Shown one piece after another: positions 2,784 to 62,824 of a stretch of DNA of 64,000 nucleotides. Location of the stretch: the NCBI GenBank assembly GCA_004335835.1, contig RWJK01001481.1, positions 48,579-112,578 on the forward strand. Direction: 5' to 3'. The notes beneath the pieces were generated by a model. It was given only the letters and a program-made list of their open reading frames with translations. It had not been told where the DNA came from and ran no database searches. Within the stretch, counting starts at the first letter, position 1; each line of letters begins with the position of its first letter. This stretch comes from Scenedesmus sp. ARA3 (lineage: Eukaryota; Chlorophyta; Chlorophyceae; Sphaeropleales; Scenedesmaceae). A program made the position numbers and the translations under genes.

Positions 2784-2875
2784 TCAGCCAGCCATCTCCC
2801 CGGCTTCGTACCTAGGAGCCTCCTCAAACCGCCACAGCCAAATGCTGCGCGCATACTGCCGCAGCTGCTGCACCT
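2784..2875 (-). pseudogene. Echo of the last exon of the PflX-like gene
   Basis: The reverse strand reads a near copy of the last ~25 codons and stop of the PflX-like gene at 3217-3310 (same FEEAPRYEAGEMAG-stop ending). It lies about 340 bp beyond the true stop, without the rest of the exon, so it is a tandem copy of the 3' exon end and probably sits in or past the 3' UTR. Confidence 0.8.
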
Positions 2876-3216
2876 CTGTCTCGTGAGCTGAGCTGAGTGA
2901 TATATGCAGTTGGACGCCAACTGCTGCTGCTAGTAACTTGGCATTGAAGGTAGTGAAGTTGCTGAGCAAACAGTCGCTGTAGAGCTACAGGAAAAAGGGA
3001 CCAGACGGCTGGATGCAGTCTCTCTCGACACCTCATCACTGGTCACTCGCATGTCCGTTGCGTTGCAGCTGTCGCAGCCCTGCTTGCTGCGCTCAGCGCA
3101 GCCTGCAAATCAAACAAATGAACAATGCCACAGCTACCCCTGCAATGACGCCGTGTGCTGGACGGTAAACAAAACACTGGCAAATGCATGCACATGCAAT
3201 ATTTGCAAGGCTGGGC

Positions 3217-3432
3217 CTAGCCGGCCATCTCCCCAGCCTCATATCTAGGAGCCTCCTCAAACCGCCACAGCCCAATACTGCGAGCATACTGCCGCAGCTG
3301 CTGCACCTCATCACTGCTCACTGGCCTGTTGATATCTTCATAGCTGTCCCAGCCCTGCCTGCTGCGCTGCTCACCAGAGCCAACCAGGTGGCGAGGGGAG
3401 TACTGCTCCATGATGTGCACGTAGGTGTCCCT

Positions 3433-3473
<41 letters not shown>

Positions 3474-5274
3474 TGTCACGGTTCACCCAGACAGGACAGT
3501 CCACACGGCTGCTGCCCAGAGCCCAAGTGCCGCCGCCGCCGCCGCCGCAGCAGCAGCAGCAGCAGCTGTCACAGTCCACACGGCTGCTGCCCAGAGCCCA
3601 GGTGCCGCAGCAGCGGACTCCTCTTGATCTACGCATGCGCATTGCAACGCACACGGCCACGCCCACCTGCCCAGTTCCATCACCACCCAGTCCAGGATTG
3701 CTTTCCCTTCATCAACCAGGCCAGGCATCACCAGGTGGCGCAGCAGCAGGCCACGCTTGGCCAGGCCGTCAGGGGAGAACACCAGGTCGCCCACCTGCAT
3801 TCAGACAGACAGTTCGGCAGCGCAGTGGGGCATGTGCTTGTCAGCTGCGCTCTGATCGGCAGGCGGTAGGCAGCAGGCCGCGCTTGAACAGGCGGTAAGG
3901 AGAAAACCATTTCCAACCTGCACACCCGCAGACAGTTGAGCAGCGCAGACAGTTGAGCAGCGCAGTGGGGCACGTGCTTGTCAGCTGCGCAGCAAGGCTC
4001 TGATCAGCAGGCAGCAGGCGGCAGGCGGCACTTGGCCAGGCCGTCAGGCGGAAACAACAGTTCTCCAACCTGCAATTCACAGCAGGTGAACACAGTGATG
4101 CAGGAAGATCATCGCCAACTCGACATCACCAGGTGGCGCAGCAGCAGGCCGCGCTTGGCCAGGCCATCAGGAGAAAATACCAGGTCGCCAACCTGCAAAG
4201 TTGTGGAAAACGGCACGAAGCAGTGCAGCAGCATGAGCAGCGTCGGCTGCTCAGAAGGCGCTGCCTGGCAGGCAGAAAGTATGATATCCCATGCTCAGCT
4301 GATACAGCTGCGTTGCCACCTCCCGCAAACGTCGCACTCCAGCAGCAAGCTATCACACAGATCAAGCAGCACCTCTTCAGCTTTCACCTGGAGGGCACGC
4401 TGAAAGCCATAGCACCTGATACCATCACGCCTAACAGACACATCCGCAGTACACAATAGGCGCAAACACCAACCTCCAATGGCAGGCTATCATGCGCAAC
4501 AAGTAGCCAGGGCCCCCACATGTCTGTTCATCTCTTTGATCACTGCCTTTGCCACTTCTGCATAGTCGTGCGCCTTTGCGCCTTAGCACAGCGCTGGCCT
4601 GACTCTGCTGTGAAGAACTTTGAATCTGGCAAATGAATCTGAGCAAGGCCATCCATGAGTGCCAGGGAGGGCATTACAAACCAGCAGCACACATGTTATG
4701 TGTCCAGTTTGTACTCAGATCCAACGACCAATCACTGTGCGCTATGCAGCCAGTTCTTGAAGCGCACCTGTCTGTGCATCTTCTTGATCGCTGCCTTTGC
4801 CACTTCTGCATAGTCCCGCGCCTTTGCGTAGCGCTGGCCCGACTCTGCCGTGAAAAGCTTGAAATCTGGCATGTAAATCTCAGCAAGGCCATCCATGAGT
4901 GCCAGGGAAGGCATTACAGACCAGCAGCACACATGTTATGTGTCCAATTAGTAATCAGATCCAACGATCGATCACTGTGCGCTGTGTAGCCAGTATCCAA
5001 AGCGCACCTGTCTGTGCATCTCCTTGATCGCTGCCTTTGCCACTTCTGCATAGTCGCGCGCCTTTGCGTAGCGCTGGCCTGACTCTGCCGCGAAAAACTT
5101 AAAGTCTGGCATGTAGATGTCAACAAGGCCATCCATGAGGGCCAGTGAGGGCAGGCCATCATACGCGCTGGTGTTGTAGATGATAGGAATGTTTAGGCCC
5201 TTCTCCACTGCTGCTGCAATGGCTTCCACCAGCTTTGGTGGGGAGAGGAGCAGCAGCAGCATCAGCATCAGCAT

Positions 5275-5305
<31 letters not shown>

Positions 5306-6350
5306 TGCAGCAGCTGTGAAGCAGTGTTGTAGATCATGGACATGTTCAGGCCCTGATGTGGAGGCGGCATCCCAAGCAATTGCTACAATGGTACAGTTGC
5401 AAGCAGTTTTGCTTGAAATGCCTCGTGCAGTTACCATGCGCATGCAGGCAGCAGCATCCAAAGCAGCAGGCTTGCATCGTTCGTTTCACCACCTCCTACT
5501 GCTCTACTGCACAGCACATCCCATGTTATGATACAAATTTTATAAGGCAAGTTTATGACATGCTCCGCACCTGAGGAGCCACGTGTTCTGGTGTCACAAA
5601 GTTGATGTTGTGGCAGTTTCCAAAGTCCTGCAGCTTCATCATCCAGTCAGCAAGCTCCGCCCCTGACAGCTCAAAGCCTGCGGGAATAGCACATGCCACA
5701 GAAACTCGGATATGCAGTGGAAACTTGAAAGTGCACTTGAAACTTGCATTGTGCAGCTTCATCATCCAGTCAGCAAGCTCCACCCCTGACAGCTCAAAGC
5801 CTGCGGGAATGTAAATATGACAGTTGGAAGGGGACAGCCAAATACTAGTGGCTGCTTGGCCTGCGCTGCTGCTGCCTCTGCCATTACTGTGTTATTCAGC
5901 ACATCAGCTGCATCACTTGCTTCAGGTTCTGCGCCTGCTGGCTCCAGGCACCTGCGGCATCTATATATGAAGGCAGCGACTTGACAAGCCATGGTGAGAG
6001 GTAACATCTTTTTCTGCTGCGTGCGGTGCTCACCCACACTGACACCTGCATCCACAACCCTGCAGCAAAGCCTTCTGCTGCACATAAACATCCCACTGCA
6101 GCGTCAAACACAGGGCATTAGGTGCTGCACATGAGCTGGCTTTGTGTCTCTTCCCCTTGCCCACCTGCTCGCTTCTGGCTGATGTCCCAGTTCTGGCAGA
6201 ACACGCAGCGCAGGTTGCACATGGAGAAAAAGACAGTGCCGCTGCCGTTCCAGCCCTGCAGCAACAGCAGCAGCAGCACAGGGTATCAGCAGCATCAAGT
6301 TGCACAAAGAGAAGAGACACCGTGCCGCTGCCGTTCCAGCCCTACAATAG

Positions 6351-6392: not shown

Positions 6393-7448
6393 TCCATGCT
6401 CAGTCTAAGACATCGCCCCTAGAAAAGGCAGCAAAGTGTGGTCCCACCTATGACACCAGCAGCTCATGCCCCACGCCACCGACAACACTTGAAGCCTTTG
6501 CCTGCCCTACGACACAGGTGACACCCTACCTGCAGCGACGACTCTTCAGCAAAGAGTGATGCCACTTTTAAAACCAGCAGCTTGCGGCCCGCCCCACTGA
6601 CAACACCACATAACGGCACTCGCCTGTCCAGTGACGACCCACTGTTGACAGCACACTGAAACAGCCTGCAGTCCACACACTGGATGCTGTCACGTCGGCT
6701 CACCTGCAGGGGGCTTTCTTCTGCAAAGTGTGGCGCCACGGTCGACACCAGCAGCTTGCGCCCCACACTACTGACAATGCTTCAAGCCATTGCCTGCCTA
6801 GCCACGGCTGAACCTGCACTCCTTACCTGCAGGGGGCTTTCTTCTGCAAAGTGTGGCGCCACGGTTGACACCAGCAGCTTGCGCCCCACCCCGCACATGC
6901 CCAGCTGCCCTGCCAACCTGTCCACGCCGCAGTCCCTGGGGCAGGCCTTGCAGTTTGCCAATTCCTGTAGACAGCAGCATGGTGATATGATGTAAAGCAG
7001 TGACACAATGTCAGCCAGTGGTGCCAGCTGCCCTGCCAGCCTGTCCACGCCGCAGTCCCTGGGGCACGCCCGGCAGTCCGCCAGCTCCTGCTCGGCAGCA
7101 GCAGCAGCATGGTTTGATTCAACGGTCATTCTCAGCCAGTGCTTTTAGGGGAGTTGGAGGACTGTCCACGCCGAAGTCCCTGGGGCAGCCGCGACAGTCT
7201 GACAGCAGCAGCAGCAGCAGCAGCAGCATAGTTGGATTTGAAAGTCAATCTCAGCCAGTGCACAAGGGGCATTCAGAGGCATGTCCACACCGCAGTCCCT
7301 GGGGCAGGCGCGGCAGTCTGACAGCTCCTGCAATTGTACAGCAGCATGCTAAAGTGACGAAATAGTGACAGACAGCAACCATGTACTGGCCTGTGGACAG
7401 TGTCACTGCCACAGTCCCTGGGGCAGGCACGGCAGTCCGCCAGCTCCT

Positions 7449-7516: not shown

Positions 7517-8130
7517 TTGAATTTGAAAGTCAATCTCAGCCAGGGCTTTTGCAGGATTTGGAGGACTGTCCACGCTGCAGTCCCTGGGGCACGCCGTGCA
7601 ATCTGCCAGCTCCTGCAGAGCGGCAAATGAACACACGCGGTTACTTTCGCTGATGTGCTGCGGGGCAAACCCTGCTGACTTCAGTGTTGCGGGCATGCAC
7701 CGTGGTGGTATGTGACAACAGCTGCAGTGCAGCTTGATTGCGCAAACGTATTAGCGTAATGCCTGCCAGGCACGGCTCTTCTTACCTTTTCTGCTGCCTT
7801 TGGGGGCATGCGCCCCAACTCCCAGTTAGCCAGTGCTACGGCTGCTGGGGCGGTATGTTTGCAGCCCACCACCGCCTGTTAGGCATGCCTCTGCCTCTGC
7901 GAGTACTTCTGCTCACCTTTTCTGCTGCCTTCAGCTTTGCCGGCATGCGCCCCAGGCGGTAGGTGGTTACTGCTGCAGGCACATAATCTTCAACAAGGAA
8001 AGGCGGGGCCAAGTGCAGACCCCGCCGCTGCTGCTGCTGCTGCTGCTGCCATGGGTGCCACGCGCGTGTCTGCTGTCGCCAAGGGTGCTGCCGCTGCCAG
8101 TGCTGCTGCTGCTGCTGCTGCCGCTGCCAG

Positions 8131-8162
<32 letters not shown>

Positions 8163-14195: not shown

Positions 14196-14230
<35 letters not shown>

Positions 14231-17525: not shown

Positions 17526-20054
17526 TTACTGGCCTGCCAAGCCTCCTGCTGTAAGCTGGCTTTGCCCAGTGCGTACTGCTCTTAGATGCGCGCGCTATCG
17601 CCCACAGCAGCATAGAAGCAGCCATAGGGTCGCTGCTGCCGCTCCAAGCACCGCCAGGTGCCCCAGCTGCAAAGTATGCAGCTACTAGCTGCTGCAGCAA
17701 CCCTGGCACTTGCAGGACATCCACCCTGCCCAGCCGTATGCAGCCCCACACTGTGTTTGTGAAGTTCAAAGGCAGGGCCAGCGCCTGACAGCTGGGCTGC
17801 AGGAAGCGTTTGACCAGCGCCAGCACTTGGTCAAACGACAGGCTGCCGCCGAGCGTGGCCGTTGACCAAAGGCACAGCCCGACAGAGCAAGGCGTGAGGT
17901 GTGAGAGCCGCCCGGGTGCTGTCAGCATGTCTGTCAGTTGCTGCACTGCTGCTGGAGGCAGCACTGGCTGCTGCAGCTCTGGAGCTGCTGCTGCTGCTGC
18001 TGCCTCACACTGCTGCTGCTGCTGCCTGTCTTGCTGCGCAAGGCAGTGCTCGCCAGTTCCTGCTTGCACCAGCCAGCCCCGCCTTGTGCAGCGCTGCTGC
18101 AGCCCACAGCGTGTTGTCCAGCCCCAGGGACTCAGTCTCATCTGCTGCTATTTCCTGCAAGATATGCGGCTGCCTAAACTGCTCCTGGATCTGCACCAGC
18201 AGCTGCCTTGGCAGCTGAGCTTGCAGTGTAGCTAGGCCCCAAAGCGTAGTGCTGATCTCCTGAGGTGCAGCACGCCGCTGCTGAGCTTGATCCAGCAGCG
18301 CTGCTGCCAGCAGGCAGAGCTCGTGGCTGGTCACTGCCTCGTGCTGCTGCAGGGTGCCGAGCGCCCACAAAAGGTTTGCGATGTCCTGCAAGGCGCGGTT
18401 GACAGGTGCGCAGCCAGCAAGAACACGGCTGTAAGTCACATGGCAGGCGTAACATTGGTGGGGTTGTGCATGACGCATTATTGTCATGTGCACGCAATCA
18501 GAATGAGGCAGAAATAGCTGCTGCTGCTCACCCCCAAACGCACTTGTGGATGCAGGCTAGCGCCACACCCTGCATACAGGTGTCGCTCCATTGCACGGCA
18601 CCACAAACTGCAGATAATATATATCAAATGGTCCATCCTCACCTGCGCATTTGCGCTGCGCAGCACCTCGCTGCTGCAGAACATGGCATACAGGTGTCGC
18701 AATCTGTAAAACTAATGTCTTCACTCATCATCATGTTACCCATCAAGCCATAGCATCAACGCCATCGGCCCCGCGCCCCAATGGAGCGTCTAATGTCTTC
18801 ACTGTACAGCTGCCACAGCCTTCACATTGAATGCATCCTCACCTGCGCATTGGCGCTGCGCAGCATTTCACTGCTGCAGAACATAGCCACCAGCGCGTTG
18901 CAGTCAGCTGCTTCCACCGCTGCTCCCAGCTTTGCTGCTGCCCACAGCGTGCGGCTGATGTCCCTTGCGCTGGCCCTCCTGAGCTGCCGCAACGCTGCAA
19001 GGCAGCCCAGCAGCTCTCCTGCAAAGCCTGGGCTTGGCAAGCTGCTTGCAGGAAGCTCTGCAATGACAAAGGCTGACAGCGTGTTACAAACCTCCACTGG
19101 CTTTGCTGCTTGAAGGAGCTGCAGCTGCGGGTGCGTCAGCAGCGCTGCTACATCTTGGAAGAGATGCAGCAGCTTGCCGTTGGGTGGAGTGCGCTTCTGC
19201 GCTGCAAGCATGGTGGCTACTCCCCACAGTGTCTGAGACACATACATGGGCTCCAGCTGCTGTGCCCTGCTGCAGCTGTCTGCTGTTCTGCGGGCTTCAA
19301 GATTGAGTAGTGCTGTGAGCAGCTGCTCCAGCTGCACATCACGCGCAGGGATGTGCAGCTTGGCAGCTGCTGTTGTGACCATGGTGATGCCCTGCGGTAT
19401 GGCTTGCTGCAGCACGCTAGGCTGTAGGAAGTGCAGCAGCAGGCCATATGCTGTACTGGTGGGTGTTGCCAAGCCACTGCGTTCCTGCAAGCGTGATAGG
19501 CTCTGCAGGACGACGGCACAGGACCTGGAGTCAAGCTGGGGCTGCTGCTGCTGCTGCGTACTGCTGCTGTCTAAACCAGAGCTGTCTGCTGCTGCTGATG
19601 GCAAGTGTGTAGCTGCCTCTGCTTGCTGAATCAAGCTGTCAAGTGCTGGCAGCAGCTGCTGCCGCAGCAGTGGCTCTAAGACACGTGGGTGTTCATGTGT
19701 CATGTTAGAGAGAGCATTCAGTGCTGCAGAGATGTGTGGAGCTGTTAGCTGCGAACCCCAACGGTCCAGCAACCGCTGGAGCTCTTGAGGATTGGGAGCT
19801 GCGCGCAGCTGGGATGTGATTGCACCTGCTGCTGCTCGGGACAACTGGCTGTGCTGCTGGTGCTGCTGGTGCTGCTGGTGCTGCTGCCTGTCCACGGTGC
19901 TAGATGCGCTGCTTCTCCGGTCTTCTCTGTTATCTTCAGCTGCAATCTTTCGGTTCTGCGACGTCCAGCTGCTACTGACATTGCTGCGATATGCTGCAGG
20001 CATGCTGGTGTCTGCTGACTTCCTCCACCAGCTGCTGCCGTCTGCCCCAGCCAT
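15150..20054 (-). CDS. OPR-type repeat protein with C-terminal RAP domain
   Basis: Exon plan (complement): 18843-20054, then 18385 down to 17080 with one internal frame change near 18.0-18.06 kb, then 15150-16811; about 1,400 aa. Many ~38-residue units carry the signature TLWxxATL or LLWALGTL (for example NLLWALGTL, STTLWGLATL, NTLWAAAAL, SRTLWAAAKL, DVVWACGEM), as in octotricopeptide-repeat proteins that bind organelle RNAs. Near the C-terminus a RAP-like domain reads VEVDGPQHFLYP, then LLRSRALRARGYAVVRVPWHDV, a fold of the restriction-endonuclease type. Role by family: chloroplast or mitochondrial mRNA processing, stability or translation; the target RNA is unknown. The Ser/Arg-rich N-terminus from ATG 20054 could be a transit peptide. 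The frame change is explained either by a short intron (GTGTGAGG to GTGCAG, about 67 bp, phase 0) or by an indel. Long CAG runs encode Gln and Ala tracts. Confidence 0.8.
18636..18705 (-). repeat. Echo of OPR/RAP exon 1 end
   Basis: The intron after exon 18843-20054 contains a copy of its last ~15 codons (MFCSSEVLRSANAQ) with an intact GTGAGG donor. A fragment of the same unit continues toward 18,540. Confidence 0.85.
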
Positions 20055-26568: not shown

Positions 26569-26630
<62 letters not shown>

Positions 26631-40197: not shown

Positions 40198-40242
<45 letters not shown>

Positions 40243-40646
40243 TGTGCATGTAGGGCAGGTGATAGTCAGCAAAGCATGGTATGTGGCCCCAGCACAGCAG
40301 CCAGCGTTGGCACCACGGGGTGTTGCTCTGCCCAGCAGGATGTACAGGGAAGCATTCTTGAAACAGGGTGCAAGTGGGTGACGGTGAGGTCAGGAGGCCC
40401 TCAGCAAACCCAATGCAATGCTACTTCTGCGTGTGCAGCAGGCTGGACAACACGCAAGCCTATTCACAAAGTCCACTGTCAAGCGCGTCGCTCAGAACAT
40501 TGAGCCTAGCCGATCGCACCATGTGACTGTTGATAAACGCACCTGCATATATCTTTCATCAACCGTAGCGGTGCCCTTGCCGTGGCTGCCGTTGCGGCCC
40601 TTGCCGCCGGCCAGACCCACAAACACGTGGTAGTCCGGGAAGCCCT

Positions 40647-40699
<53 letters not shown>

Positions 40700-43600
40700 G
40701 CAATGTCATACAGGCCCACAAACACGTGGCAGTCAGGGAAGCCCTGCAGCAGCAGCCGCAGCAGCAGCAGCGGCGGCAGTGCAATGTCAGCCAGGCCCAC
40801 AAACACGTGGCAGTCCGGGATGCCCTGCAGCAGCAGCAGCGGCAGCAGCAGTGCATTGTCAGACAGGCCCACAAACACGTGGAAGTCAGGGGAGCCCTGC
40901 AGCAGTAGCAGCAGCAGCAGCAGCAGCAGCAGCAGTGCAGTGTCAGCCAGGCCCTCAAACACGTGGTAGTCGGGGCAGCCCTGCAGCAGCAGCAGCAGCA
41001 GCGTTGTCAGCCAAGCACAGAAGCTCTGACAGCGCCTGAGACAACACGCGCTGCAAACAGCCAGTGCCGTGTCACAACAGGTGAATTGGCCGAGATCCTT
41101 GGGACGAAGACAGCTCAACGCACCTGGCAGCGCGCGTTCTCGCGAATGCTCAGCACGCGGTCCTGTGTAGGGTGCACCAGCTCCAGGTTGTGCGGCTGCC
41201 GGCACTGCTCGCAGTGCGCCCAGCCAGTGCCGCCACACACCAAACACAAAGTGCTGGAACTGCCAGAACTGCTGGATAACATAGCAATGCTGGACTCTTG
41301 CGCACCTGGCAGCGCGCGTTCTCCCGATGCTCAGCGCCCTGTTCTGTGTGGGGTGCACCACCTCCAGGTTGTGCGGCTGCCGGCACCACCCACACCCGGC
41401 CAGGCCCAGCCAGTGCGGGCACATTAAATGCACATCGCTGCAACACCCTGACTTCCTCTTATGTTCAGACTCCTGCTCAGCCTGGCAGCGCATTCTGGCA
41501 GTCGTGCGAGAGCACTATATGGACAATATAGTGTGACACATACTCCGCACCTGGCAGCGCGCGTTCTCGCGTATGCTCAGCACGCGGTCCTGGGTGGGGT
41601 GCACCAGCTCCAGGTTGTGCGGCTCCGCGCGCGTGACCACTGTCGGCTGGATTTGGTCCCACCAGATGCGCCCGAAGCAGCCGTGCCTGCCGTTGGAGGC
41701 GCCGCCCTTGTACGTTACGCACCAGCTGCAGCAGAAGGCGAAACAACATGGAAGAGCAGTGCTGTGAGAGCGTGATCCTCGCCTTGTTTATGTCTGTGAC
41801 AGCATGTTTTTTCCCGCTGGGATTGTAGGCGTCACGCGCCAGCTGCATAGCAGGCAGCAGGACAAGCATTGATATGTGGCAGGATGTGAGCACTTTGGGC
41901 GAGATCTGGTCGTGCCAGACGCGCCGGAGGCAGCCGTGGGCACACCAGGTCCAATCTCGAGAACAGATGCGCGCCGCTGGCGCAGCCTGTCGGCGCCCAT
42001 TCAAAAAGGGCGCTCACTCTCCAAACGGCAACAGCATGCAGGGCCGATGATTGAAATCACTCACCGCGGGCACACCAGGTCTCCCGTGTTGGTGAAGTAC
42101 GTGACACTGCTGCAGCCCTCCAGCTTGCTGCCGCGCCAGGCCCCGTTGGCTGTGCTGCCGTAGCTGTCCACCCTGAAGGACTTGTGGTTGCCGTCGCTGC
42201 CTTGGAAGCCCTTCGGGGGCTTGGGGGGCATGCCGCCGCCGGGGCAGCCGCACTGCAGCAGCAATGAAAGAGGTTGACAAGTGACACAGCACGGTCGGGA
42301 TGAGAGTGGTTGGTCTGTGTGGGGTGAGTCTGGAATCCCTCCGCAAGCATGAGGCAGCTGCTGCTGTAAAGGCAGCGGCGGGTGATGGGGTGGAAAGGAG
42401 AGTGTGTCGCAGCTGTCCTCCATTACGGCTGTGTGGTTGCGGTCAGTGCCTTAGGAGGCGGGCAGCTTTGGCAGCATGCCGCCGCCAGGGCAGCTGCATA
42501 CAGGTGCATACGATCATCAGCCCGCAGCCGACCCTCCCCTTACCATGATAGCATGTAGCATCAAAAATGAATCATATGTCATCTTGATAATCAACGTAAT
42601 TATACAAAAGATCTCACCTCCATCTCCACGCCCCTGAATAGGAAGGCATGCCGTCCTTCTTGCCACGCTCCTCCTCACCCAGCACCTGCCACGCAACTCC
42701 TTTCGAAATCCGACATCATCTTCAATAAAGGTAAACCTTGGAAGCCAATCAGTTCACATGTGTGATGATAAAGATTTTGTTTCAAATATATTTCACTCAC
42801 CTCCATCTCCACGCCCCTGAACAGGAAGGCCATGCCGTCCTTCTTGCCGCGCTCCTCCTCGCTCAGCGCCCGCCAGGCAGCCAGGTTGGCCGCAAGCTGC
42901 GCCTTGTTGGCGGCGCTGTCCATGGTGCGCTGCTCCGCGTGCCAGGACCCCGAGCAGCAGGTGCCTGCGGATGCAGAAAATGCACGATACAGGTGCAGAA
43001 ATGCAGGATATAGGTGTCAGCAGTTGCGCCTTGTTGCTGGCGCTGTCCACAATGTGCTGCTCCGCGTGCCAGGAGCCCGAGCCGCACGTGCCTGCAGCAT
43101 GCCTATACCATCAGCCTGTTTTGCCCTGCTTAACATTCAACATCAATCAAGCTCACATCGCGCGCACCAGCCAAGCGCTCACCCCTGCGCTCTTGGTTCC
43201 TGCCGCCCCCGGGTGCGTCACCACGCCCGGCATGTCCCTACAGTTGGCACCCTTCGATTGGGCACAGCACAACCACAACAGCCATCAACCAGCACCATCA
43301 AATAATAGGAAACCTGTTCAAACCATCAGCCTGTTTCGCCCTGCCTAACATTCAGCAGTATTCATGCTCACATCGCACACACAGCTCAGCGCTCACCCCT
43401 GCCGCTCTTGGACCCTGCCGCCCCTGGGTGCGTCACCACACCTGGCATGTCCCTAAAGTTGGCCCCGTTCTCTTTCGGCACAGCACAACCACAACAGCCA
43501 TCAACCAGCACCATCAAATAATAGGAAACCTGTTCAAACCATCAGCCTGTTTCGCCCTGCCTAACATTCAGCAGTATTTAAGCTCACATCGCACACACAG

Positions 43601-46106
43601 CCAAGCGCTCACCCCTGCCGCTCTTGGTTCCTGCCGCCCCTGGGTGCGTCACCACGCCCGGCATGTCCCTAAAGTTGGCCCCCTTCTCTTTGGGCACAGC
43701 ACACATGCGGCGGTAATCGTCCTCGTTACACATGAGGGGCCTGTGGTCCCTCAGCGGTGCAGCCGCGTCCACCTGTGCTGCTGCTGCATCCATGTGCAGC
43801 TTTTGCTGTGACAGGACAGCATGAACGTGCAGCAGAGGCAGCAGCGGTGAGTGTGAGCAACAACTGCCTATGGTGCTGCAGCAGCACCTCCTGCTGACGC
43901 GCCAAGGTGCAGCGTTGGAGCTGCAAACTGTAAATATGAACACAAACTGGCTGCCACCCAATGACATAATTATGTTGTCAGGTAACATAACAACACCGGC
44001 TGCTGCGTGGTGAGGCCCTCATTTGCCGTCGCACATGCTGCTTGTTGTGCAGAGGCTCACATCAGACTGCGCAGGTGATCTTCACGCAGCGACACCAAAC
44101 GTAGCAAATAGAAAGCGGCGGCCTCACCTGCCCCCGCACGTACTGCGTGTTGTGCAGCTCCGCGGCGCGCTGCAGGTGCAGGATCTGCCGCGCGATGGGG
44201 TCCTCAATGCTGTTGAGGTGCTTGAGCCAGGTCTGCGTGGCAAAGTGGCTGCCCCCCTGCATCTCGGCAGCAAGCTCTGCAGCAGCAGCAGCAGCAGCAG
44301 CGGCAGCAGCACAGGCGATCCAGCATTCGTCAAGATTGTGGAGATGTTGAGCTCCAGAGATCATGATACAGGGGTCAACTCAATTGATAAATACATCAAG
44401 TTCCCTGTTTCAAGTGGCGTGAACGCGCTGCCCAGAACAATGACATCTTGTTGAGGTGTTAGGCTCCAACATGCTTTGATGTTGATGTCAACATAATAGC
44501 TGCAGGTGCAGCAGCACACAATGCGCCGCCCACCTGCTGTGTCCTCATCATCTGCAGCATCGCCACCCTCATCTGATGCTGCCACCTCGTCTGCTGCTGC
44601 AGCAGCACCCTTCTTGCCAGCACCCTTCTTGCCTGCAGACGGCTGCTTGCCCTGCTGCTTGGCGCCTGCTGCTGCTGCTGCTGCGCTGCTGCTGCCGGCG
44701 CCATCTGTTGGGCCTGCTGCTGCTGCTGCTGCTGTCGAGGGGCCTGTCAGGTCAGCGAGTGAGATGCTGCCCTTGCCTTTGCACAGCAGGCGCGCACCCA
44801 CCGCCAGTGTCTGCACACCATCAAATGTTGCTCTTTTGTGTCAGACATTACCAAGATACACTGATGCATGCATGATGAAGTGGTGCGCAGCATTTCAGAA
44901 ACGATCAGCTGCAGCAGCGATTTGCGTACCCAGCACGCCACGCAACATGTTGGCTGCTGTGGGTCGCACGTGCGCTCTCAGCTGCTCATGCTGCCAAGCA
45001 TCGATTTAAGCAGCAGTTGATAGTCAGCAATAGGAACGTCTCCACAACGCACCATCACCAGGTTTCCCACACCATCTGTCTTGCACACTCTGTTACAATC
45101 TCTGTGACAAACAAAAAATATACAGTCCCATCAACCCCTGCTACGGCTCACCATGGCCAGCGTGTCCTCGCTCTCTGGCTGCGCCAGCATCTCCGGCGCC
45201 CGCTGCTGCATCTGCTGCCAGGGCTCCATGGCGGCACCGGCGTGGATGCAGCGCTCCCGCAGCGAGCGGCTGTAGCCGGGAGGGGTCCGCCGCAGCCAGG
45301 CCTGCGCCACTGACCGCGGGTCGCTCGCATAGTGCTGCCTGTCGCCCTACAATAAAAGAAACAGTGCAAAGCAATCACATGTGAGTCCTGGCATTCTCTG
45401 AAGCTGGTATGAGCCAGTATGCCATGGTTGTTGTGCAGCGGCAGAATGGAAGTGCCAGGAATGAGGTGTGGGTGAGGGTGAATGCGTGTGTGTATGAGGA
45501 TGCGTGTATGCAGCGCTCCAGCAGGGAGCGGCTGTAGCTTGGCGGGGTCCGCCGCAGCCAGGCCTGCGCCACTGACTGCGGGTCGCTCGCGTAGTGATGC
45601 CTGTCGCCCTGCACACAACAGCAAGGCATTCCCATAATGTTATGGCAAGAGGAGTTGCAGGCATGGGTTTGGCGATGCGCGGGAACGCCCATGCCACAGA
45701 GTGTGGGTCGCTCGCGTAGTGCTGCATGTCGCCCTGTGCAATGCACATGAACGCAGCCGGCCGCAACACACGGCAGCGATGGTGAGTGCAGTCAATGCAT
45801 GCACACCGTGTACGCGGCGTAGGCAGGGTGTCGTGGCATATACACAGCAGTAAGCAAGGCTCGCGTGCTGCCAGCATTGATACAACCCGCAAGTAGCAAG
45901 GGGAGGCAGTGGTCGCTGCAACAGTCTGCGCAGTGCTCTTTGCATCCAAAACACCAAAACAAGAAAAGCGGCAGTGCAGGGACTTGGGCAACATGCCTGC
46001 ACTGTTGTTATGTCTGATGCGATGCATGGCGGTGTGAGTATATGGGGTGGCGTGGGGTGGGGTGCGGGTTGTTTTCCCTGCAAATGCAATGATGACAATA
46101 ACAATA

Positions 46107-46142
<36 letters not shown>

Positions 46143-46276
46143 TAATAACAATAATGATAATAATGATGATCTTTAGTGATTTGTTTCTCACCTCCTCATA
46201 GTTGGACACTGCTGGCAGGTCTGTCAGCACGTCCCCCATCAGCGTCCAGGGGTGCAGGCCTGCCTCGCCCTTCTGC

Positions 46277-46328
<52 letters not shown>

Positions 46329-49248
46329 TCAGCAATGGCAGAAGACGTGCTAGATGGACCAAACTAGCTGCTAGCAGCTGGGATATGCACCCCGCATCTA
46401 GTGCTGCAGCTGCAGCTGCAGTGGATGCATCCACCAGACAAGATGCATGACATCTCTGTCTACAACAGTTCAATCTTTGTTTATCTTGCAATGCACAGCA
46501 CGTTGCAACCCTCCCAAAAAGCGCACTCACGGGGAAGCCAGCACGGCAGGCTGCGTCCAGCAATGGGAAGCAACATGGCATGCATCACATCTTTGTTTAT
46601 AACAATCTTTGTTTATCTTGCAATGCACAGCACGTTGCAACCGTGCCAGCAAGTGAACTTACGGGGAAGCCAGCACGGCAGGCTGCGCCAGACAGGGGGA
46701 AGTCCTGGTTGAAGGGCAGGCAGCGGTGCGTGGGCGCCGGGAAGGGCGGCAGCTGCTCCTTGCCGCTGGCTGCTCCCCAGAACATGGCACGCATGCGGCC
46801 CTGCAGCAACATAAGGAATGAAGTAGTAACAGTTGTGGTCGTCAGCAGCAGCAGTGCGAGGCGCAGGGAAGGGCGGCAGCTGCTGCTTGCTGCTGGCTGC
46901 ACCCCAGAACATGGCGCGCATGCGGCCCTGCAGCAACATAAGGAATGAAGTAGTAACAGTTGTGGTCGTCAGCAGCAGCAGTGCGAGGCGCAGGGAAGGG
47001 CGGCAGCTGCTGCTTGCCGCTGGCTGCACCCCAGAACATGGCGCGCATGCGGCCCTGTAGTTCAGTTATGCAAAATAATCATGAATATTGTACCTTAGCG
47101 GGTGTCCGTCATGCAACGGTTGTTTGTTACTAAGGCCCAAGCAGCCACATGGCAGCTCTTCAGATCCAGATGCTCATCGCGCATTTGCAGCTGCAAAAGC
47201 GCTGATGCGAACTAGTCACAGAGTAATGCAACAACAAGCACCTCTCCTGGCTACAGCTGGATGATCAAGGCGGCACCAACAGATGACGCACCTGAGGCAC
47301 GCCGTATTCGCCGGCAACGCAGATGGCTGCGTGCGCCTGGTAGCCACTGCCGACCATCAGCGTCATGGCGTAGCGCGCATACGTGGCGTTCTCCTTGCGC
47401 CACACGTCGCACACCTGTCAGCAGCAGCAGCAGCAGCAGCAGCAGTACCAGGGCACAGCAGCAGGTCAGGGAGGGTCCTTGGCAGCCACTGCTAAGGGAA
47501 GATGCAGGTGCAGGAGCATGACCAGCTGCATGTAGGCCGTCAGCAGACAACGCTCACAACAACTTGCAGGCACAACAAGCACAACGCATGCATCAGCAAG
47601 CATTAATCAGCAGGAGGCACAGCAGCACACCTAGCCGATGCAGATGAAGCTGGGCTGCAGTTGATTCAATGCAGTTGACCCAATGCACTCTGTGTAGGCT
47701 GTTGACAGGTCAACAGTAACAACAGCAGCACGCAAAGCCTCCCAGCAAACCTCAAGCCCACCTGCTCCATGAAGATGAAGCAGGGGGCTGCAGCTCTAAG
47801 CTTCGCTGCATGTAGGCCATCAAACAAGTTGATGGAACAACCAGTTGTAAAACCTGAAACCTGAGCCCACCTGCTCCATGAAGATGAAGCTGGGCTGCAG
47901 GTAGCCGATCAGCTTCAAGTCTATGGCAATCACTTGAAAGTCAACAGTCCACCCAAAAACCAGGCACAGCACACCTTAAGCCCACCTGCTCCATGCAGAA
48001 CAAGCTGGGGGCTGCAGGTAGCCGATCAGCTGCATATATGTTGTCAACAGTCGACAGACTGTCGCCAACATACATGCAGCTCATCGGCTACCTGCAGCCC
48101 CCAGCTTCAACTTCATGGAGCGACTCAACAACATCAGAAACAACCTGGCTCAACCCTCAACCCAGCGAAGCTAAGCCCACATGCTCCATGAAGATGAAGC
48201 TGGGCTGCAGGTAGCCGATCAGCTTCATGTATGCCTTTGACACATGTAACAATCAGGCACAGAAACCCCAAACCAGGAACACAGAACCCGGTAAACCCCA
48301 AGCCCGCCTGCTCATGAAGATGAAGCTGGGCTGCAGGTAGGCAATCAGCTTCATGTATGAAGCTGGGTTGCAAGCATCAGCTTCATGTAGGACTGTGACA
48401 GCCGTAAACCTACCAGGCAGGCAGTGCCCACCGTAAACCTAGGCAACCCTACACCCAGCAAACCTCAAGCCCACCTGCTCCATGTAGATGAAGCAGGGGG
48501 CTGCAGCTCCAAGCTTCGTTGCATGTAGGCCATCAAACGAGGCAATGATAACAAGTTGTAAACCCGGTACACCCTGAGCCCACCTGCTCCATGAAGATGA
48601 AGCTGGGCTACAGGTAGGCAACCAGCTTCATGTACGTAGCTGGGTTGCAAGCATCAGCTTCATGTGGGCCTGTGACAGCCGTAACACCAGGCAGGCATCG
48701 CCCACCATAACCTAGGTACCCCTACACCCAGCAAACCCTCAGCGCACCTGCTCCATGAAGATGAAGCTGGGCTGCAGGTAGCCGATCAGCTTCATGTAGG
48801 CCGTCACCAGGCGGTTCTTGGGGTCGTTCAGGATCTCCTGCTGCTTGGCGTGCCTATTCAAGCCGCTCACGTTCTGCATGGATGGCAGGCAGGCAAGCAG
48901 GCAGGCAGGCAGGCAGCAGGGTTGTTGCACAGCAGGCATGCGCAAGGGTTGCTTTGCAGGGTGCAGCACACCCTGCAGCTTGGCATGCCTGTTGAGGCAT
49001 AGCAGGCACACACTGCGGGATCACATCAAGCAAGCGCAGGCAGCAGCAACTGCGCAGTAAGCGTCAACCACAAACTTCGCATCAGCAGCGCACCTGGCAG
49101 GGCGGCCCGCCAGTGAGCACGCCCACATCCCCCGGCATGGGGATCTGCTTGTCTGCCAGCATGGCCAGCATGAAGCGCTGCATGGGTGCCACGCCATCCG
49201 GCCGCCACAGCAGCGCCTGGTGCTCCCAGGCCCACTCGCTGCTGTCAT

Positions 49249-49280
<32 letters not shown>

Positions 49281-50983: not shown

Positions 50984-51019
<36 letters not shown>

Positions 51020-54000
51020 TCATCCTCAGCAGCACCAAACACAGGCGGCGGCAGGCCCTGCTGTGCACGGTACTCCCGCACCGCTTTCTCGCCCCGTGCT
51101 GCTGCTGCAGTGTGGCCGTCAGACGAAGTGCCAGCCTTGCCCATGGTGGTACCCCACACGCCCACGCCCTGCAGGCGCGGTCAACGACGGTCAAACACAG
51201 TCAACACTCGGTCAAACGCGGTCAATGTATGGTCAAACTTTGACTGTTCAGGCAGGAGACGTCCTGCGCGCCCGCAGGTCATGCACAGGCACAGCTCTTG
51301 AGCAATGCTTAGCTGGAAACAATCCAAGCGGTAGGCAATGGATGCGAGTGGTCGGCAATGGATGCAACTCCTGTCACCCATCCTGCCATAGGCAGTGTGG
51401 TGAAGTAAGTCATGTGCCATGGCCGGCTGCACCCGCAGCTGCTCTCAATATATGGCATGCGCTCTGCTAGCGCGCAACGCCTTTGCACACCAATGCTTAC
51501 TTCCTGAACGCACATGATGCGCTCATCCTGTTGTGGCTTGTATCAACTCGTACCGTCTACGATGGTGCTCGGACCCACACTTAACTACCCGCTCTCTTTA
51601 TGCCCACCAGAGGGACGTGCCACATAACCAGGCTGCAGCCGCCACTGTGCCCTGCATGGCATGCCCTCTGCTAGCGAGCGGTACCCTAGGGAACCAAAGC
51701 CTACCTGTGGGATGTGAGTGCGCGCAAACTTGCGCTGAGGACCTCCACTGCGCAGCTGCTGCAGCTCCGGGATCTGCATCCAGCCGCTGCCGCAGTAGCG
51801 GACCACCTCCAGGCCCCACTTCATGCACAGCTGCGTGAGCTCCTCCATGCCCACACACGACATCTGCAGCAGCAGCAGCAGCAGCGCAAGATGTGTGAAG
51901 ATTGGGGTCCCACTTCATGCACAGCTGCGTGAGCTCCTCCAGGCCCACACACGATATCTGTGGCGGCAGCAGCAGCAGCAGCGGCAAGTCATTTGTGACA
52001 CATGATGCAGGAAACCTTGCAGCTTCCTCGCAAGCGCACCCTCAACACTGGCTGCAGCACTGGGTTCATTACCAATCCAGCAGCAGCGTGCTACTCACAA
52101 ATGCTTCAGGGTGGTTGCAGGATCACATGGCAGAGGCCGGGTTGCTGCATGCAATGCTGCATCTCAAGGCCTCAACTGCACATGTCACTTATTACTCTAG
52201 CACTGCCACCGCAGCAGCCTGCTACTCACGAACGCCTCGGGGTGATTGCAGGTATAGGTAGCAGACGCCGAGTTGTTGATGTCGTTGGCCCAGCCGTGCT
52301 TGATGGCCACCTTGTCATTAAACTGGGCCAGGTATGCCAGGCCGCCGCCGCCGCAGAACAGCTCCAGCACGTACAGCACCTGCAGCCATGGTCAGATTCA
52401 GATTCAATCTTTCAAATGCAGATATAAATCGCTGTTTGAGATCCCGCCGCTGCCACAAACCAGCTCCAGCACGTACAGCACCTGCAGCCATGGTCAGATT
52501 CCGATTCATTCTTTCTGAATAAAATTTAAACATCGGTTTGAGATCCCGCCGCCGCCACAAACCAGCTCCAGCATGTACAGCACCTGCAGGCACGCGCAGT
52601 GCACGATTCAAATGTCATACGACGGCCCACCAGTAGCGCAGACTGGCTCCAGCACGTGCAGCACCTGCAGGCACGCGCAGCACAATTCAAGTGTCATGTG
52701 TGAAACCTGCCCGGCTGTCATACATAGCTTGGAAAGCCTGCCGACTGAAGCACCTACAGCGCCTCCAGCCACAAGCAGCACACCACATTGTAACATGACA
52801 ACTTGTTACGGCATCAACAGCTGTACATACATCCCTGAGCAATTAACCCTAAAGCCGACCCTCATTATCCGCTTGCCTTCTCCCTGCTGCTGCGCCAGCA
52901 TCAGCTTCTGCCGTTCAGCCCTCGCAACAGCCCTGCAGGGTTGTGGAGCCGCAGCAGCAGCCCCCGTATGTCATCCACGAACATCAAACATCAACCCTCA
53001 ACCCTGCAACCCCGCTCACCCGCTTGCCCTCGCCTTGCTGCACAAGCACAAGCTTCTTGCCATTCAGCCCTCGCATCAGCCCAGCAGGGTTTTTGAGGCG
53101 CGGATACCCGCCACGCCCTTCTCGTGCCAGGAAAAAGAGTCGACGCAATACCCATAACCCTAGAACCCTCAAACGTCGACCCTAAACCATGCCCCACTCA
53201 CCCGCTTGCCTTCTCCCAGCTGCACAAGCACAAGCTTCTTGCCATTCAGCCCTCGCATCAGGCTGGCGGGGATCTTGAGGCGCGGCAGCAGCTCCTTAAC
53301 ACCCGCCACGCCCTTCTCCTGCCACAGATAAGGGTTGACGCAATACCCGAAACCCTAGAACCCTCAAACATCGACCCTAAACCATGCCCCACTCACCCGC
53401 TTGCCCTCTCCCAGCTGCACAAGCACAAGCTTCTTGCCATTCAGCCCTCGCATCAGGCTGGCGGGAATCTTGAGCCGCGGCAGCAGCTCCCTGATCCCCG
53501 CCACTCCCTTCGCCTGCCAGAGCTGCTTGTAGTGAGGCCCAAACAGTGTATAGTCCTCAAAGCAGTCCGCAAACATGAAGTGGTCTGTGTGCGTGTACGA
53601 GTTGTAGAACCAGTCCTGCTGGTCATCAAACTCGCCCTGTAAGAGGGCAGGGCAGCAGTAGGAAAGGAGCTCAGCGCCGCATACACAAGTGTGCACTGTG
53701 CACTGTATAGAACGGTCCTGTTACCAGCATCAGAGAACTCAAAAAGCCAGCTCGCAAGGCTGTCTGTCTAGTCACCAGGGTAAGGTACGGCAGCAGTGCG
53801 AGAGGGCAGGGCAGCAGGAGTGAGGTGAGCTCAGCGCCGCGAACACAATCGACAGCGGCGTCCAACAACCCAGCGTGCAAGGCTGTTTGTCTAGTCACCG
53901 GGTAAGGTGCAGACGACTGGCTGCAGACAACTAGCAGACATGCAGGTCACAGGGTAGCGCTGTTCATCAAACAAGTGCAAAAAAAGGAGATTGCTAGGAA

Positions 54001-56280: not shown

Positions 56281-56313
<33 letters not shown>

Positions 56314-60061: not shown

Positions 60062-60092
<31 letters not shown>

Positions 60093-60247
60093 CGAGCAGC
60101 AGCAGCAGCAGGACGAGCAGGAGCAGCAGGGCGAGCAGGAGCAGCATGCTGACGAACAGGACCTGCAGCAGCAGGAGCTGGAGCAGCAGCAGCAAGACGA
60201 GCAGCAGCTGGACGAGCAGCAGCAGGATGACCTGCCGCAGCAGCAAG

Positions 60248-60297
<50 letters not shown>

Positions 60298-62824
60298 GAC
60301 AGTGACGACGCTGGTGCTGCTGCCGCGCGGCGCATGTCGCAGCAGAACAGCGAAGCAGCAGACGACAACCTGCTGCTTGGCTTAGTGGATGAAGATGATG
60401 ATGCAGAAGCACAGCAGCCAATCATGAAGAAGCCACAGCCAGTGAAGCTGCCGCCGCCTCCTCAGCAGCCGCCTGCTGCTGCTGCTGCTGGTGATGCAGA
60501 GGCAGATGCTGCTGCAGCGGAGGCTGCAGGCATCTCGCCTGCTGCATACAGCAAGCTGAATGCGAGGCAGCGGCGCACCCTGGCCCGGCAGGCGCAGCGC
60601 GGCGGCGCGGCAGGCGGCGGCAGCGGCAGGCAGCGCATACCTTCGTTTGAAGAGGCGATGGGGCATGGCGGCGGTGCAAACGGCAGCGCGGAAGCAGCAG
60701 GAGCGTTAGCAGCAGCATTAGCAGCAGCACAAGATGGAGTCAAAGAAGAGGAACAGAAGGTGAGAGGTGGCAGATTGGTCTAGGAATGCGACACATGGCC
60801 TTAAAAAGCTGCATTGTTGCCCGGCAGCGTCTGTGGTGTGGCTTGCCTGCACAGCCGCCCTCTGCTGCAGCTGCCGGCGTAGGCGCGTCTTTCGTCGCAT
60901 GCCACCAGCACCGTTGTGCTTGATTCTTGAGTACTGTGTCTTTTTGTTGCAATTGCGCGTGCAACCGCCGCCTCGCCGCACGCGAACAGAACATCCGTGT
61001 TGGCTGTACCTGATAAAGTGATCCTCGTCCCTGCTGTTCCTTGTGTGTTGCCGCTGCCCCACATTGGCACCCTGCACGGGCTCCTGCCTCACCACGTGTC
61101 ACCAGCACCAGCGTGCTAACTGTTTCTCAATGACTGTGTCTTGCTGTGCATCCTGCCTGCACAGGCGCCTGCTTCGCCGCATGTCAACAACACCATCGTG
61201 TACATCGGCAACCTGCACTGGTGGACCACTGATACTGCGGTGGAGGCTGCAGTGACAGAGTTTGGCCCAGTGACCAGCTGCCGCTTCGTGGAGGAGCGAG
61301 CAACAGGTGGGTGCTACGTTTTTTGTTGCGTTTTCAATGGGCAGCACACTTACAGTGTCAGCTGCAGGTGGTGGTTGCATGTGCCAGGCGCCGCCCCTTG
61401 CTGGGCGCTCAGGTGCGCTTTTGTATGCGTCCCTTGAGCTGTCATGTGTCTCTTGCGTGGTGCGGCTGGTCTGCATCAGTCATGTGCAGCATTTTGTGAA
61501 GCTGCCGCGAACAAGCATGACACATTGCGTTCTGTGGTGCCTTGTTTGTAAGCCTCTCCCTTGTTGCTGCCTCTGTCTATGCGATGTTTTGGTTGCAGAC
61601 AAGTCCAAGGGTGTGGCTGTGGTGGGAGTCATGGATGCTAGAGAACAAACAGAACATATCATCTACTGTATGTCCACTGCTCCTTCGTAAGCCTATCCTT
61701 GTTGCTGCCTCTGTTCGTGTATGCACTGTTTCATGTGCAGGCAAGTCCAAGGGTGTGGCGGTGGTGGAGTTCATGGATGCTGCTGCTGCTGCTGCTACTC
61801 CAGCCTTGATCCTTAAATGTGCTTTTGTTGTCTGTCATGTCGTGCAGGCAAGTCCAAGGGTGTGGCTGTGGTGGAGTTCATGGACGCTGAGGGGGCGCGG
61901 CGCTGCAAGGCGGAGCTCACAGGGTAAGGATGCGTGGCCGTGGTGCTGCTGCTGCTGCTGCTGCTGCTGCCGCTGCTGCTGCTGCTGCTGCTGCTGCAGC
62001 GACGGCAGTAGCCGACGGTAGCAGCTGATGCTTGGTAGAGACACTTGAGACAAGTGTAGGGGCAGCATGACTGCCAAGCTGAACACGTATGTATCTGCAA
62101 TCATGGTTGTTGACGGTGCCTGCACCAGGTGCTTGAGCCCCGCGCTGCCGTGCAGGCAACATCTGTACATCCTTTCACTCTTGTTGCGCCTTGTTCTGCA
62201 ACTTCTTCTGGTGTCTGCAGGCGCGAGCTGGATGGGCGTGCAGTGGTTGTCACCTGGGCGGCGCCGGGGCAGGTTGCGCAGTTCCTGAAGGGCCAGCAGG
62301 GCCGCAACTTTGGCCTAGGCATGGGCTCGTGGGGAGGAGGCATGCAGCAGCACCAGCAGCAGCACCAGCACCAGCACCAGCACCAGCAGGGCTTCGTGCA
62401 GCAGCAGCAGCACCAGGGGGGCGGCAAGGGCTGGGGCCAAGCCGGAGGAGGGTTTGGCGGGAGGGGAGGAGGGTTTGGCGGGCGAGGCGGGCGGGGCGGT
62501 GGGAACCAGATGCAGCAGCGTGGCGGGCGGGGCGGGTATGGCGCGGTGCCACCTGGAATGCCGGAGGGAGCAATGGGTGCGGCAGGTGGCATGGGCCCGA
62601 TGGGTCACACGGGTGGCGGTTTTGGGGGCATGAACCCTCAGATGAACCCTCAAATGATGATGATGATGGCGCAGATGATGGGGAGGGGTATGATGGGGGG
62701 CCCTGGGGGGTATGGCGGCATGGGGCCTGGGGCAATGGGGCCTATGGGTGGCGGGATGATGGGGGGTGGCGGGGGCTATGGGATGGGGGATGAAGAGCAG
62801 GACTTCAAGCGGCAGCGGCGGTAG
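59534..62824 (+). CDS. CPSF6/CFIm68-like RRM protein
   Basis: Exons: 59534-59591, 59822-60759, 61165-61306, 61848-61923, 62221-62824; phases agree, giving 605 aa. A single RRM spans exons 3-5: VYIGNLHWWTTD (RNP2), CRFVEERATG, KSKGVAVVEF (RNP1) and LDGRAVVVTWA. The WWTTD motif after RNP2 is characteristic of the large subunit of cleavage factor Im (CPSF6/7), which sets poly(A) site choice in the nucleus. The N-terminal DDDFGAFEG start resembles that family. Exon 2 is an acidic and Gln-rich low-complexity stretch of over 200 residues built from CAG repeats. The C-terminus is Gly/Met/Gln-rich with GGRGG boxes and ends DFKRQRR, possibly a nuclear signal. Intron copies exist of exon 3 and exon 4 starts. 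Confidence 0.9.
60870..61120 (+). repeat. Three decayed echoes of CPSF6-like exon 3 start
   Basis: Around 60877-60920, 60968-61005 and 61077-61117 there are degraded copies of the start of exon 61165 (pattern CGCCTC-CGCCGCATG-C-ACAGCACC-CGTG), with the intron stretch ACTGTGTCTTxxTGTTGC between them. Spacing is 90-110 bp; these are older copies. Confidence 0.65.
61598..61795 (+). repeat. Two echoes of the RNP1 exon start
   Basis: Copies of the start of exon 61848-61923 begin at about 61600 (DKSKGVAVVGVMDA) and 61741 (GKSKGVAVVEFMDA), each after a TGCAG acceptor. The first reads through into a short unrelated tail, and the second runs into a CTG repeat encoding Ala. Confidence 0.93.

What the first reader, a model, noticed from the sequence alone, without database searches (positions are those of the whole stretch)
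2784..61795. Pervasive tandem 'echoes' of exon edges in introns of most genes
Seen directly: more than 30 places in seven unrelated genes on both strands, where 20-150 bp of an exon edge plus its splice site and adjoining intron is repeated 2 to about 10 times in tandem. Copies of exon starts lie upstream and copies of exon ends downstream, including past the stop codon of three genes. Decay usually increases with distance from the real exon. This goes beyond ordinary alternative-exon duplication and suggests a genome-wide process that grows introns by repeated duplication across splice junctions, possibly fed by CAG/CTG slippage. I do not know of a described system with this density.
Basis: partly seen in the sequence, partly recalled or inferred. 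Interest (0 to 1): 0.92.

Follow-up and report, generated by a model that had tools for sequence, protein, structure and literature searches.

The report
Exon-edge tandem echoes growing algal introns
In this green-alga genome about a quarter of the exon edges examined are repeated nearby as decayed copies, typically about 125 bases apart, a widespread duplication process that goes with longer introns.

Summary
In the window 33 of 130 splice edges have a same-strand copy on the outward side, against 3 of 130 on the far side and 1 of 130 inverted; 75 copies sit at 38 edges in seven genes, three of them with copies past the stop codon. Nineteen other 10-kb stretches give 78/290, 9/290 and 0/290. 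Copies step by about 126 nt, rarely under 100. Periods of 100-260 nt occur in 33 of 37 edge-spanning arrays and 7 of 67 noncoding ones. Echo introns are longer (median 544 vs 310 nt). Copies carry frameshifts and three tested introns have no other genomic match: neither alternative exons nor introners. Neutral decay of simple tandem duplications is rejected by simulation: the exon half stays similar while the intron half diverges, yet as a group keeps faint in-register homology. Best reading: edge-spanning tandem duplications whose exon-derived half is re-homogenised by the constrained exon; the last step is inferred. CAG slippage and decay with distance are not supported.

The parts
2786..2876 (-). 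echo of the last 91 nt of the radical-SAM-like CDS, past its stop codon (3217-3219); homology ends at the stop
   Evidence: 91% identity
3870..4197 (-). three echoes of the start of exon 3667-3794
   Evidence: 81, 81, 92% identity
4517..4913 (-). two echoes of the end of exon 5008-5232 with intron (TRF period 240)
   Evidence: 92% and 83% identity; intron halves of the inner pair homologous, z=44.9
5324..5354 (-). short partial echo of the start of exon 5008-5232, not reaching the edge
   Evidence: 88% over 32 columns
5752..5810 (-). echo of the start of exon 5571-5677, intron flank not alignable
   Evidence: 98% identity, D=123, z=0.6 for the intron halves
6289..6343 (-). echo of the start of exon 6165-6255
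   Evidence: 84% identity
6431..6766 (-). echoes of the end of exon 6827-6964: two that reach the edge and one partial
   Evidence: 98%, 77% and 81% identity
7024..7619 (-). echo array of the start of exon 6827-6964
   Evidence: five copies, 84-96% identity, three reaching the edge
7672..7817 (-). two echoes of the end of exon 7917-8519, one partial
   Evidence: 80% and 75% identity
13179..13339 (+). two echoes of the end of GST exon 12968-13081
   Evidence: 85% and 93% identity
13922..13968 (+). echo of the end of GST exon 13649-13748
   Evidence: 96% identity, D=215; intron has no other genomic match
18640..18687 (-). echo of the end of RAP-gene exon 18843-19591
   Evidence: 90% identity
24637..24782 (+). 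two echoes of the start of HGLS exon 24837-24937
   Evidence: 98% and 93% identity
25191..25504 (+). two echoes of the start of HGLS exon 25596-25760 (TRF period 212)
   Evidence: 79% and 90% identity
26846..26926 (+). echo of the end of HGLS exon 26630-26771
   Evidence: 79% identity
27391..27440 (+). echo of the end of HGLS exon 27233-27307
   Evidence: 98% identity, D=121
27598..27922 (+). three echoes of the start of HGLS exon 27994-28181, steps 131/136/126 nt
   Evidence: 94, 84, 74% identity
28302..28678 (+). two echoes of the end of the HGLS CDS, past its stop codon (28183-28185)
   Evidence: 94% and 67% identity
34513..34598 (+). echo of the end of the MYND-like CDS, past its stop (34419-34421)
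   Evidence: 89% identity
39738..39854 (-). echo of the end of methyltransferase exon 39891-40082
   Evidence: 82% identity
40139..40197 (-). echo of the start of methyltransferase exon 39891-40082
   Evidence: 97% HSP; only 26 nt, not reaching the edge, scored after masking
40665..41002 (-). array of echoes of the start of methyltransferase exon 40543-40644, with CAG tracts
   Evidence: TRF periods 72-84; HSPs
41119..41382 (-). two echoes of the end of methyltransferase exon 41551-41725
   Evidence: 89% and 95% identity
41886..41938 (-). partial echo of the start half of methyltransferase exon 41551-41725
   Evidence: 77% identity, not reaching the edge
42402..42498 (-). echo of the start of methyltransferase exon 42065-42252
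   Evidence: 75% identity
42613..42695 (-). echo of the end of methyltransferase exon 42801-42964
   Evidence: 90% identity
43022..43095 (-). echo of the start of methyltransferase exon 42801-42964
   Evidence: 86% identity
43154..43487 (-). two echoes of the end of methyltransferase exon 43588-43805 (about 215-nt period, intron part conserved)
   Evidence: 93% and 92% identity; intron halves z=40.6 and 14.3
45502..45736 (-). two echoes of the start of methyltransferase exon 45152-45346
   Evidence: 92% and 86% identity
46443..46570 (-). echo of the end of methyltransferase exon 46663-46800
   Evidence: 91% in the exon part; intron halves z=28.8
46845..47060 (-). two echoes of the start of methyltransferase exon 46663-46800 (TRF period 127)
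   Evidence: 90% and 91% identity
47498..48670 (-). largest array: 11 listed echoes of the end of methyltransferase exon 48748-48873, of which 8 reach its edge, plus one inverted copy (48071-48121)
   Evidence: 79-98% identity
49458..49659 (-). two echoes of the end of methyltransferase exon 49702-49832, one partial
   Evidence: 87% and 76% identity
49905..50349 (-). echo array of the start of methyltransferase exon 49702-49832 (TRF periods 105-111)
51906..51998 (-). echo of the start of methyltransferase exon 51705-51863
   Evidence: 95% identity over 55 nt
52444..52697 (-). three echoes of the start of methyltransferase exon 52230-52379 (TRF period 102)
   Evidence: 90, 90, 87% identity
52846..53330 (-). 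three echoes of the end of methyltransferase exon 53397-53636
   Evidence: 93, 87, 78% identity
61545..61790 (+). two echoes of the start of RRM-like-gene exon 61848-61923
   Evidence: 98% and 90% identity

Best explanation
Short tandem duplications with a unit of about 100-260 bp (mode about 126) that straddle an edge of coding sequence (acceptor, donor or stop codon). SHOWN: they are local, direct and numerous; they sit almost always on the side that leaves the mRNA intact; they are concentrated on coding edges; echo-bearing introns are longer; their exon-derived block is not coding now; and the exon block stays similar to its parent while the intron block diverges, keeping faint homology in register as a group. 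INFERRED: the duplications arise by replication slippage, template switching or unequal exchange. Units under about 100 nt are lost, probably because two splice sites so close misdirect splicing. The exon-derived blocks go on exchanging sequence (unequal exchange or gene conversion) with the parent exon, which purifying selection holds constant, so exon blocks stay recombinogenic and seed further units while intron blocks drift. Introns thus grow in steps of about 125 nt.
For: Orientation and side bias. Step size, nearly independent of exon-block length (r=0.21). Periods of 100-260 nt in 33 of 37 arrays that span coding edges, against 7 of 67 noncoding-only arrays. Young duplications (>=92%, >=60 nt, step 90-320) touch coding in 15 of 20 cases and at >=88% in 38 of 49 (9 noncoding only, 2 coding only), against 32% for random 126-nt units not inside coding. 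Simulated neutral duplications, under nine age settings, leave at most 8% (exon identity >=95%) or 17% (90-95%) of pairs with intron homology ending within 15 nt; observed 18 of 33 and 26 of 59. In sharp-edged pairs the sequence from +18 on is still homologous in register (84 pairs, none of 4000 permutations as high; off-register control p=3e-7, 82 pairs), so the intron half was duplicated too. Sharp and full duplications have similar steps (medians 151 and 138; 38% and 35% within 115-140) and similar exon-block divergence, and exon identity does not track intron identity (rho 0.09, p=0.23, 169 pairs), as expected if the exon block is refreshed. Echo introns are longer, and outside their arrays average 262 nt against 341 nt for echo-free introns.
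Against: Exchange between exon and echo was not seen directly; clustering of differences inside blocks is weak (longest clean run at mean percentile 0.57, p=0.0095, 115 blocks). The in-register homology of sharp pairs is modest (median excess about 1 score unit; 12 of 84 above 4), so part of them could still be edge-only copies. A simple exchange model gives only about a twofold difference between exon and intron halves, less than seen. Against a laxer control, random 252-nt stretches, 54% touch coding, which makes 15 of 20 only a mild excess. The edge enrichment holds for young pairs too, so either births are favoured at edges or old arrays breed new units; I cannot tell which. The 126-nt step has no identified cause. 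Codon position 2 (5.8%) versus fourfold sites (19.1%) would also allow some past constraint on the copies.
Confidence: 0.5

Rival explanations
1. Plain neutral tandem duplication at a uniform high rate; exon edges stand out only because the parent exon does not mutate.
For: Many full-unit duplications exist (51 of 169 pairs have >30 nt of intron homology); side and orientation follow from selection on the mRNA.
Against: Simulation predicts far fewer sharp-edged pairs than seen; edge-touching duplications are in excess even among young ones (with the laxer control noted above); periods of 100-260 are rare in noncoding-only arrays.
Confidence: 0.12
2. An exon-edge-only copying process (RNA- or microhomology-templated, primed at the splice consensus) writes exon ends into introns at a fixed offset.
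For: Exon blocks of 39 and 46 nt with no mismatch followed by unalignable intron (L012, L027); set step; inner boundary without further homology in most pairs (median excess -0.14, though the mean of 141 pairs is above chance, p=0.002).
Against: Residual in-register homology of the intron halves; stop codons, which are no splice sites, are echoed as well; copies of exon interiors into introns are rare (4 of 203 windows).
Confidence: 0.2
3. Functional alternative exons or splice sites (tandem exon duplication).
For: Copies keep strong splice-site scores (donor median 5.6 vs 6.2, acceptor 5.3 vs 5.9); differences are enriched at third codon positions. The radical-SAM stop echo differs from its parent mainly at third positions and both read a stop there (seen in the alignment).
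Against: 110 of 125 gaps in copies are not multiples of three; copies are partial and lack a splice site at the inner end (GT follows 0 of 99 acceptor-type copies; acceptor-like scores at donor-type copies are no higher than in random intron).
Confidence: 0.05
4. Introners or another mobile element.
For: Introns here are long and repeat-bearing.
Against: Three echo-bearing introns (13749-14239, 45347-46191, 42253-42800) match nothing else in the 87-Mb assembly except their own exon edges (that search skips simple repeats and very common words, and only three introns were tried).
Confidence: 0.02
5. Assembly artefact.
For: Reads were not available; arrays of this kind can be mis-sized.
Against: Most copies differ from the parent by several percent or more, with substitutions and small indels; the pattern recurs on many contigs.
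Confidence: 0.01

Closest known systems
Intron gain by tandem genomic duplication of an AGGT-bearing exon segment (PMC3443670 and PMC2891723, passages read; PMC4974935, search listing only)
   Same: Tandem duplication of exon sequence leaves exon copies in introns; a duplicated splice motif lies between copies.
   Different: There a new intron is born inside an exon. Here existing introns (and 3' flanks) hold the copies, units repeat up to about ten times, and echo donors are not enriched for AG|GT (34 of 56 vs 96 of 151), though echo acceptors are weakly (16 of 45 vs 29 of 168, p=0.013).
Daphnia neointrons with direct repeats from staggered double-strand breaks (PMC4202315, passages read)
   Same: Exon-terminal direct repeats within introns; repeated events lengthen introns.
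   Different: Exon-terminal repeats there are 4-12 bp, in recently gained introns; here exon blocks are mostly 30-100 nt, in 70 of 232 introns, with a preferred step.
Direct repeats near intron borders (PMC11782384, abstract read)
   Same: Repeats at exon/intron borders.
   Different: Pairs of 4-30 bp read as insertion scars; not tandem arrays of exon edges.
Introners (PMC9860276, passages read)
   Same: Genome-wide change of intron content.
   Different: Introners are dispersed families; these copies are local.

Membership tests
Tandem genomic duplication (general mutation class) | Direct, adjacent copies of one unit | tested here: met
   103 direct vs 8 inverted local HSPs; TRF arrays
Tandem genomic duplication (general mutation class) | Whole unit duplicated, intron half included | tested here: met
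   Clear in 51 of 169 pairs; for the 91 sharp-edged pairs only shown as a group, faintly
Intron gain by AGGT tandem duplication | Duplicated unit becomes a new intron between formerly contiguous exons | tested here: inconclusive
   Copies lie inside existing introns or past stops; no intron-less relative available to test a gain
Introner | Same sequence family in introns of many genes | tested here: not met
   no match elsewhere for the three introns tried
Tandem exon duplication / alternative exon | Whole exon with both splice sites and an intact frame | tested here: not met
   Partial copies, frameshifts, no inner splice site
Staggered-break neointron (Daphnia type) | Filler sequence flanked by short (4-12 bp) direct repeats | tested here: not met
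   Repeats are far longer, and as a group the spacer is homologous to the flank beyond the copy
Staggered-break neointron (Daphnia type) | Recent gain shown against an intron-less relative | not testable with these tools
   No relatives held

The most novel reading that the evidence does not exclude
This algal lineage has a dedicated or strongly biased duplication process that targets edges of coding sequence with a set step of about 125 bp, and it is the main engine of intron growth: constrained exons act as permanent seeds, so introns lengthen in steps by exon-anchored arrays. It could help explain why introns of green algae are long and lack the usual short peak.
Probability: 0.3. Interest if true: 0.9.

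Novelty: new variant of a known kind. Interest (0 to 1): 0.77.

Why it matters
How introns lengthen without transposons is open. For Chlamydomonas and relatives, PMC8226300 (passages read) notes long introns without the usual 60-110 bp peak, calls the advantage of the extra length unknown, and says whatever mechanism drives intron length is likely ancient. Here 22,066 of 95,588 intron bases examined lie between an exon edge and its outermost echo, a process with a measurable step, which makes intron growth testable by comparing strains. It also warns that gene finders will call echo copies as exons: mine did so at many places before I masked them.

Tried and rejected
CAG/CTG slippage as the driver: no association after matching intron length (p=0.055 unmatched). 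Reading-frame selection on the step: D mod 3 is roughly even (62, 51, 56). Mini-exon or stwintron reading: inner ends carry no splice signal. Rescue splicing through AG|GT: no excess at donors, weak excess at acceptors. Exon-edge-only copying looked attractive, but the intron half proved faintly homologous. Decay with distance: not significant. Paralogue searches with long queries were dominated by CAG repeats in the listed part of the matches and gave nothing. Eight paper searches (open-licence PMC only, listings capped) showed no title or abstract start describing such arrays; that is weak evidence of absence.
Full report
WHAT WAS CHECKED. The window lies in an 87.3-Mb assembly of 1567 contigs with no relatives held. 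A long ORF has five homologues that all carry PF08373 (RAP, name recalled), and the learned splice motifs are CAG|GTGAG and TGCAG|G, which fits a green alga (recalled). GC (56.6%) and mean intron length (412 nt, from the totals) resemble the Tetradesmus obliquus entry in PMC5966456 (57%, 462 bp; passages read), but the species is not identified. No annotation existed, so I wrote a simple gene finder trained on this sequence, saw that it called echoes as exons, and re-ran it with echoes masked by hand. Of 85 exons, 76 in 11 gene ranges were kept. GST, HGLS and BolA rest on Pfam hits; radical-SAM, MYND, RRM and CMT-like names are recalled from motifs (three radical-SAM pieces gave no Pfam hit).

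THE OBSERVATION. Local self-matches are mostly direct: 103 against 8 inverted within 3 kb. At splice edges: 33 of 130 outward same-strand, 3 of 130 far side, 1 of 130 and 0 of 130 inverted. By 60-nt windows, a local copy was found for 33 of 111 exon-edge windows, 10 of 103 first-intron windows, 4 of 203 exon-interior windows, 23 of 515 intergenic windows and 143 of 530 intron-interior windows; the last include echo-to-echo matches. One search lists 75 copies at 38 edges. In 19 other loci (157 high-confidence exons, 290 edges) the counts were 78, 9, 0 and 0; 16 of the 18 loci with testable edges had at least one.

ANATOMY. Pooling both sets gives 213 copies, of which 169 reach the edge of their exon and are used below. 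Successive copies are 120-139 nt apart in 52 of 169 cases, under 100 in 3, with a second hump near 240. Among the 98 steps under 165 nt the median is 130 for donors and 125.5 for acceptors, and the step hardly depends on exon-block length (r=0.21). In the window 27 of 30 donor copies keep GT and 25 of 26 acceptor copies keep AG, and splice scores are nearly those of the originals. The inner end of copies is at no special site, with homology beyond it in few cases (5 of 141 clearly; mean above chance, median not). Gaps within copies are mostly not multiples of three (110 of 125).

THE SHARP EDGE. Identity is about 0.9 up to the splice site and falls to 0.3-0.5 within about 20 nt, against 0.25-0.3 for unrelated flanks. 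Intron homology ends within 15 nt in 91 of 169 pairs and runs beyond 30 nt in 51. Simulated neutral decay of full duplications does not give this. The alternative, that only exon edges were copied, is weakened by in-register homology from +18 to +68 in the sharp-edged pairs (84 pairs; the 41 with exon identity >=90% are significant too), measured against other loci and against off-register windows of the same intron; the effect is modest. Exon-block divergence is alike in sharp and full pairs (position 2: 6.5% and 5.0%; fourfold sites 20.0% and 17.3%), and exon identity does not predict intron identity. I read this as duplications of various ages whose exon block is refreshed from the parent; the refreshing step is inferred.

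EDGE SPECIFICITY. Of 142 tandem arrays with period 10 or more, 37 span a coding edge (33 with period 100-260), 67 are noncoding (7 such) and 38 coding (1 such). Among young pairs (>=92%, >=60 nt) 15 of 20 touch coding; at >=92% and >=100 nt 7 of 9; at >=90% and >=80 nt 18 of 24; at >=88% and >=60 nt 38 of 49. Random 126-nt units not inside coding touch it in 5623 of 17447 placements (32%); random 252-nt stretches do so in 10122 of 18694 (54%), a laxer control under which the youngest set is only mildly in excess. Three stop codons in the window are echoed, so a splice site as such is not required.

INTRON GROWTH. Of 232 introns, 70 carry an echo: median length 544 vs 310 nt (p=2e-15). The stretches from an exon edge to its outermost echo cover 22,066 of 95,588 intron bases; outside them echo introns average 262 nt, against 341 nt for echo-free ones. 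Longer introns also have more room for copies, but the shorter remainder argues for growth.

LIMITS. Exons are predicted, without RNA. Copies within one array share history (146 of 189 double differences are shared, 28 expected if independent), so pairs are not fully independent. The 19 loci come from contigs that had matched a CAG-bearing query. No relatives, reads or transcripts were available.

VERDICT. A real, widespread and quantitatively striking form of tandem duplication anchored on edges of coding sequence, going with longer introns and a step of about 125 nt. The mutation class is known; its density, step and exon anchoring were not described in any title or abstract start that my eight searches listed, nor in the passages read.

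Noticed in passing
48071-48121: One inverted copy of the methyltransferase exon end inside the direct array, and a self-complementary stretch 47988-48121: hints at template switching.
   Followed up: partly
57510-57644: Imperfect palindrome (75% over 141 columns) in the noncoding stretch beside the methyltransferase gene.
   Followed up: no
2890-3022: Noncoding stretch with a 79% match on another contig (G000:C876:13069-13207), possibly a dispersed repeat.
   Followed up: no
38769-56888 (-): Gene that looks like a plant CMT-type DNA methyltransferase (name from motifs recalled, not from a family search) and carries the most echoes.
   Followed up: partly
2786-2876 vs 3219-3309: The echo past the radical-SAM stop differs from its parent mainly at third codon positions and also reads a stop codon there, unlike most echoes; it could be a former alternative last exon.
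   Followed up: no
window-wide: Very dense CAG/CTG trinucleotide runs in exons and introns, with many matches elsewhere in the genome.
   Followed up: partly
L022: A requested stretch (G000:C1139:40001-50000) reads as N throughout (withheld).
   Followed up: no
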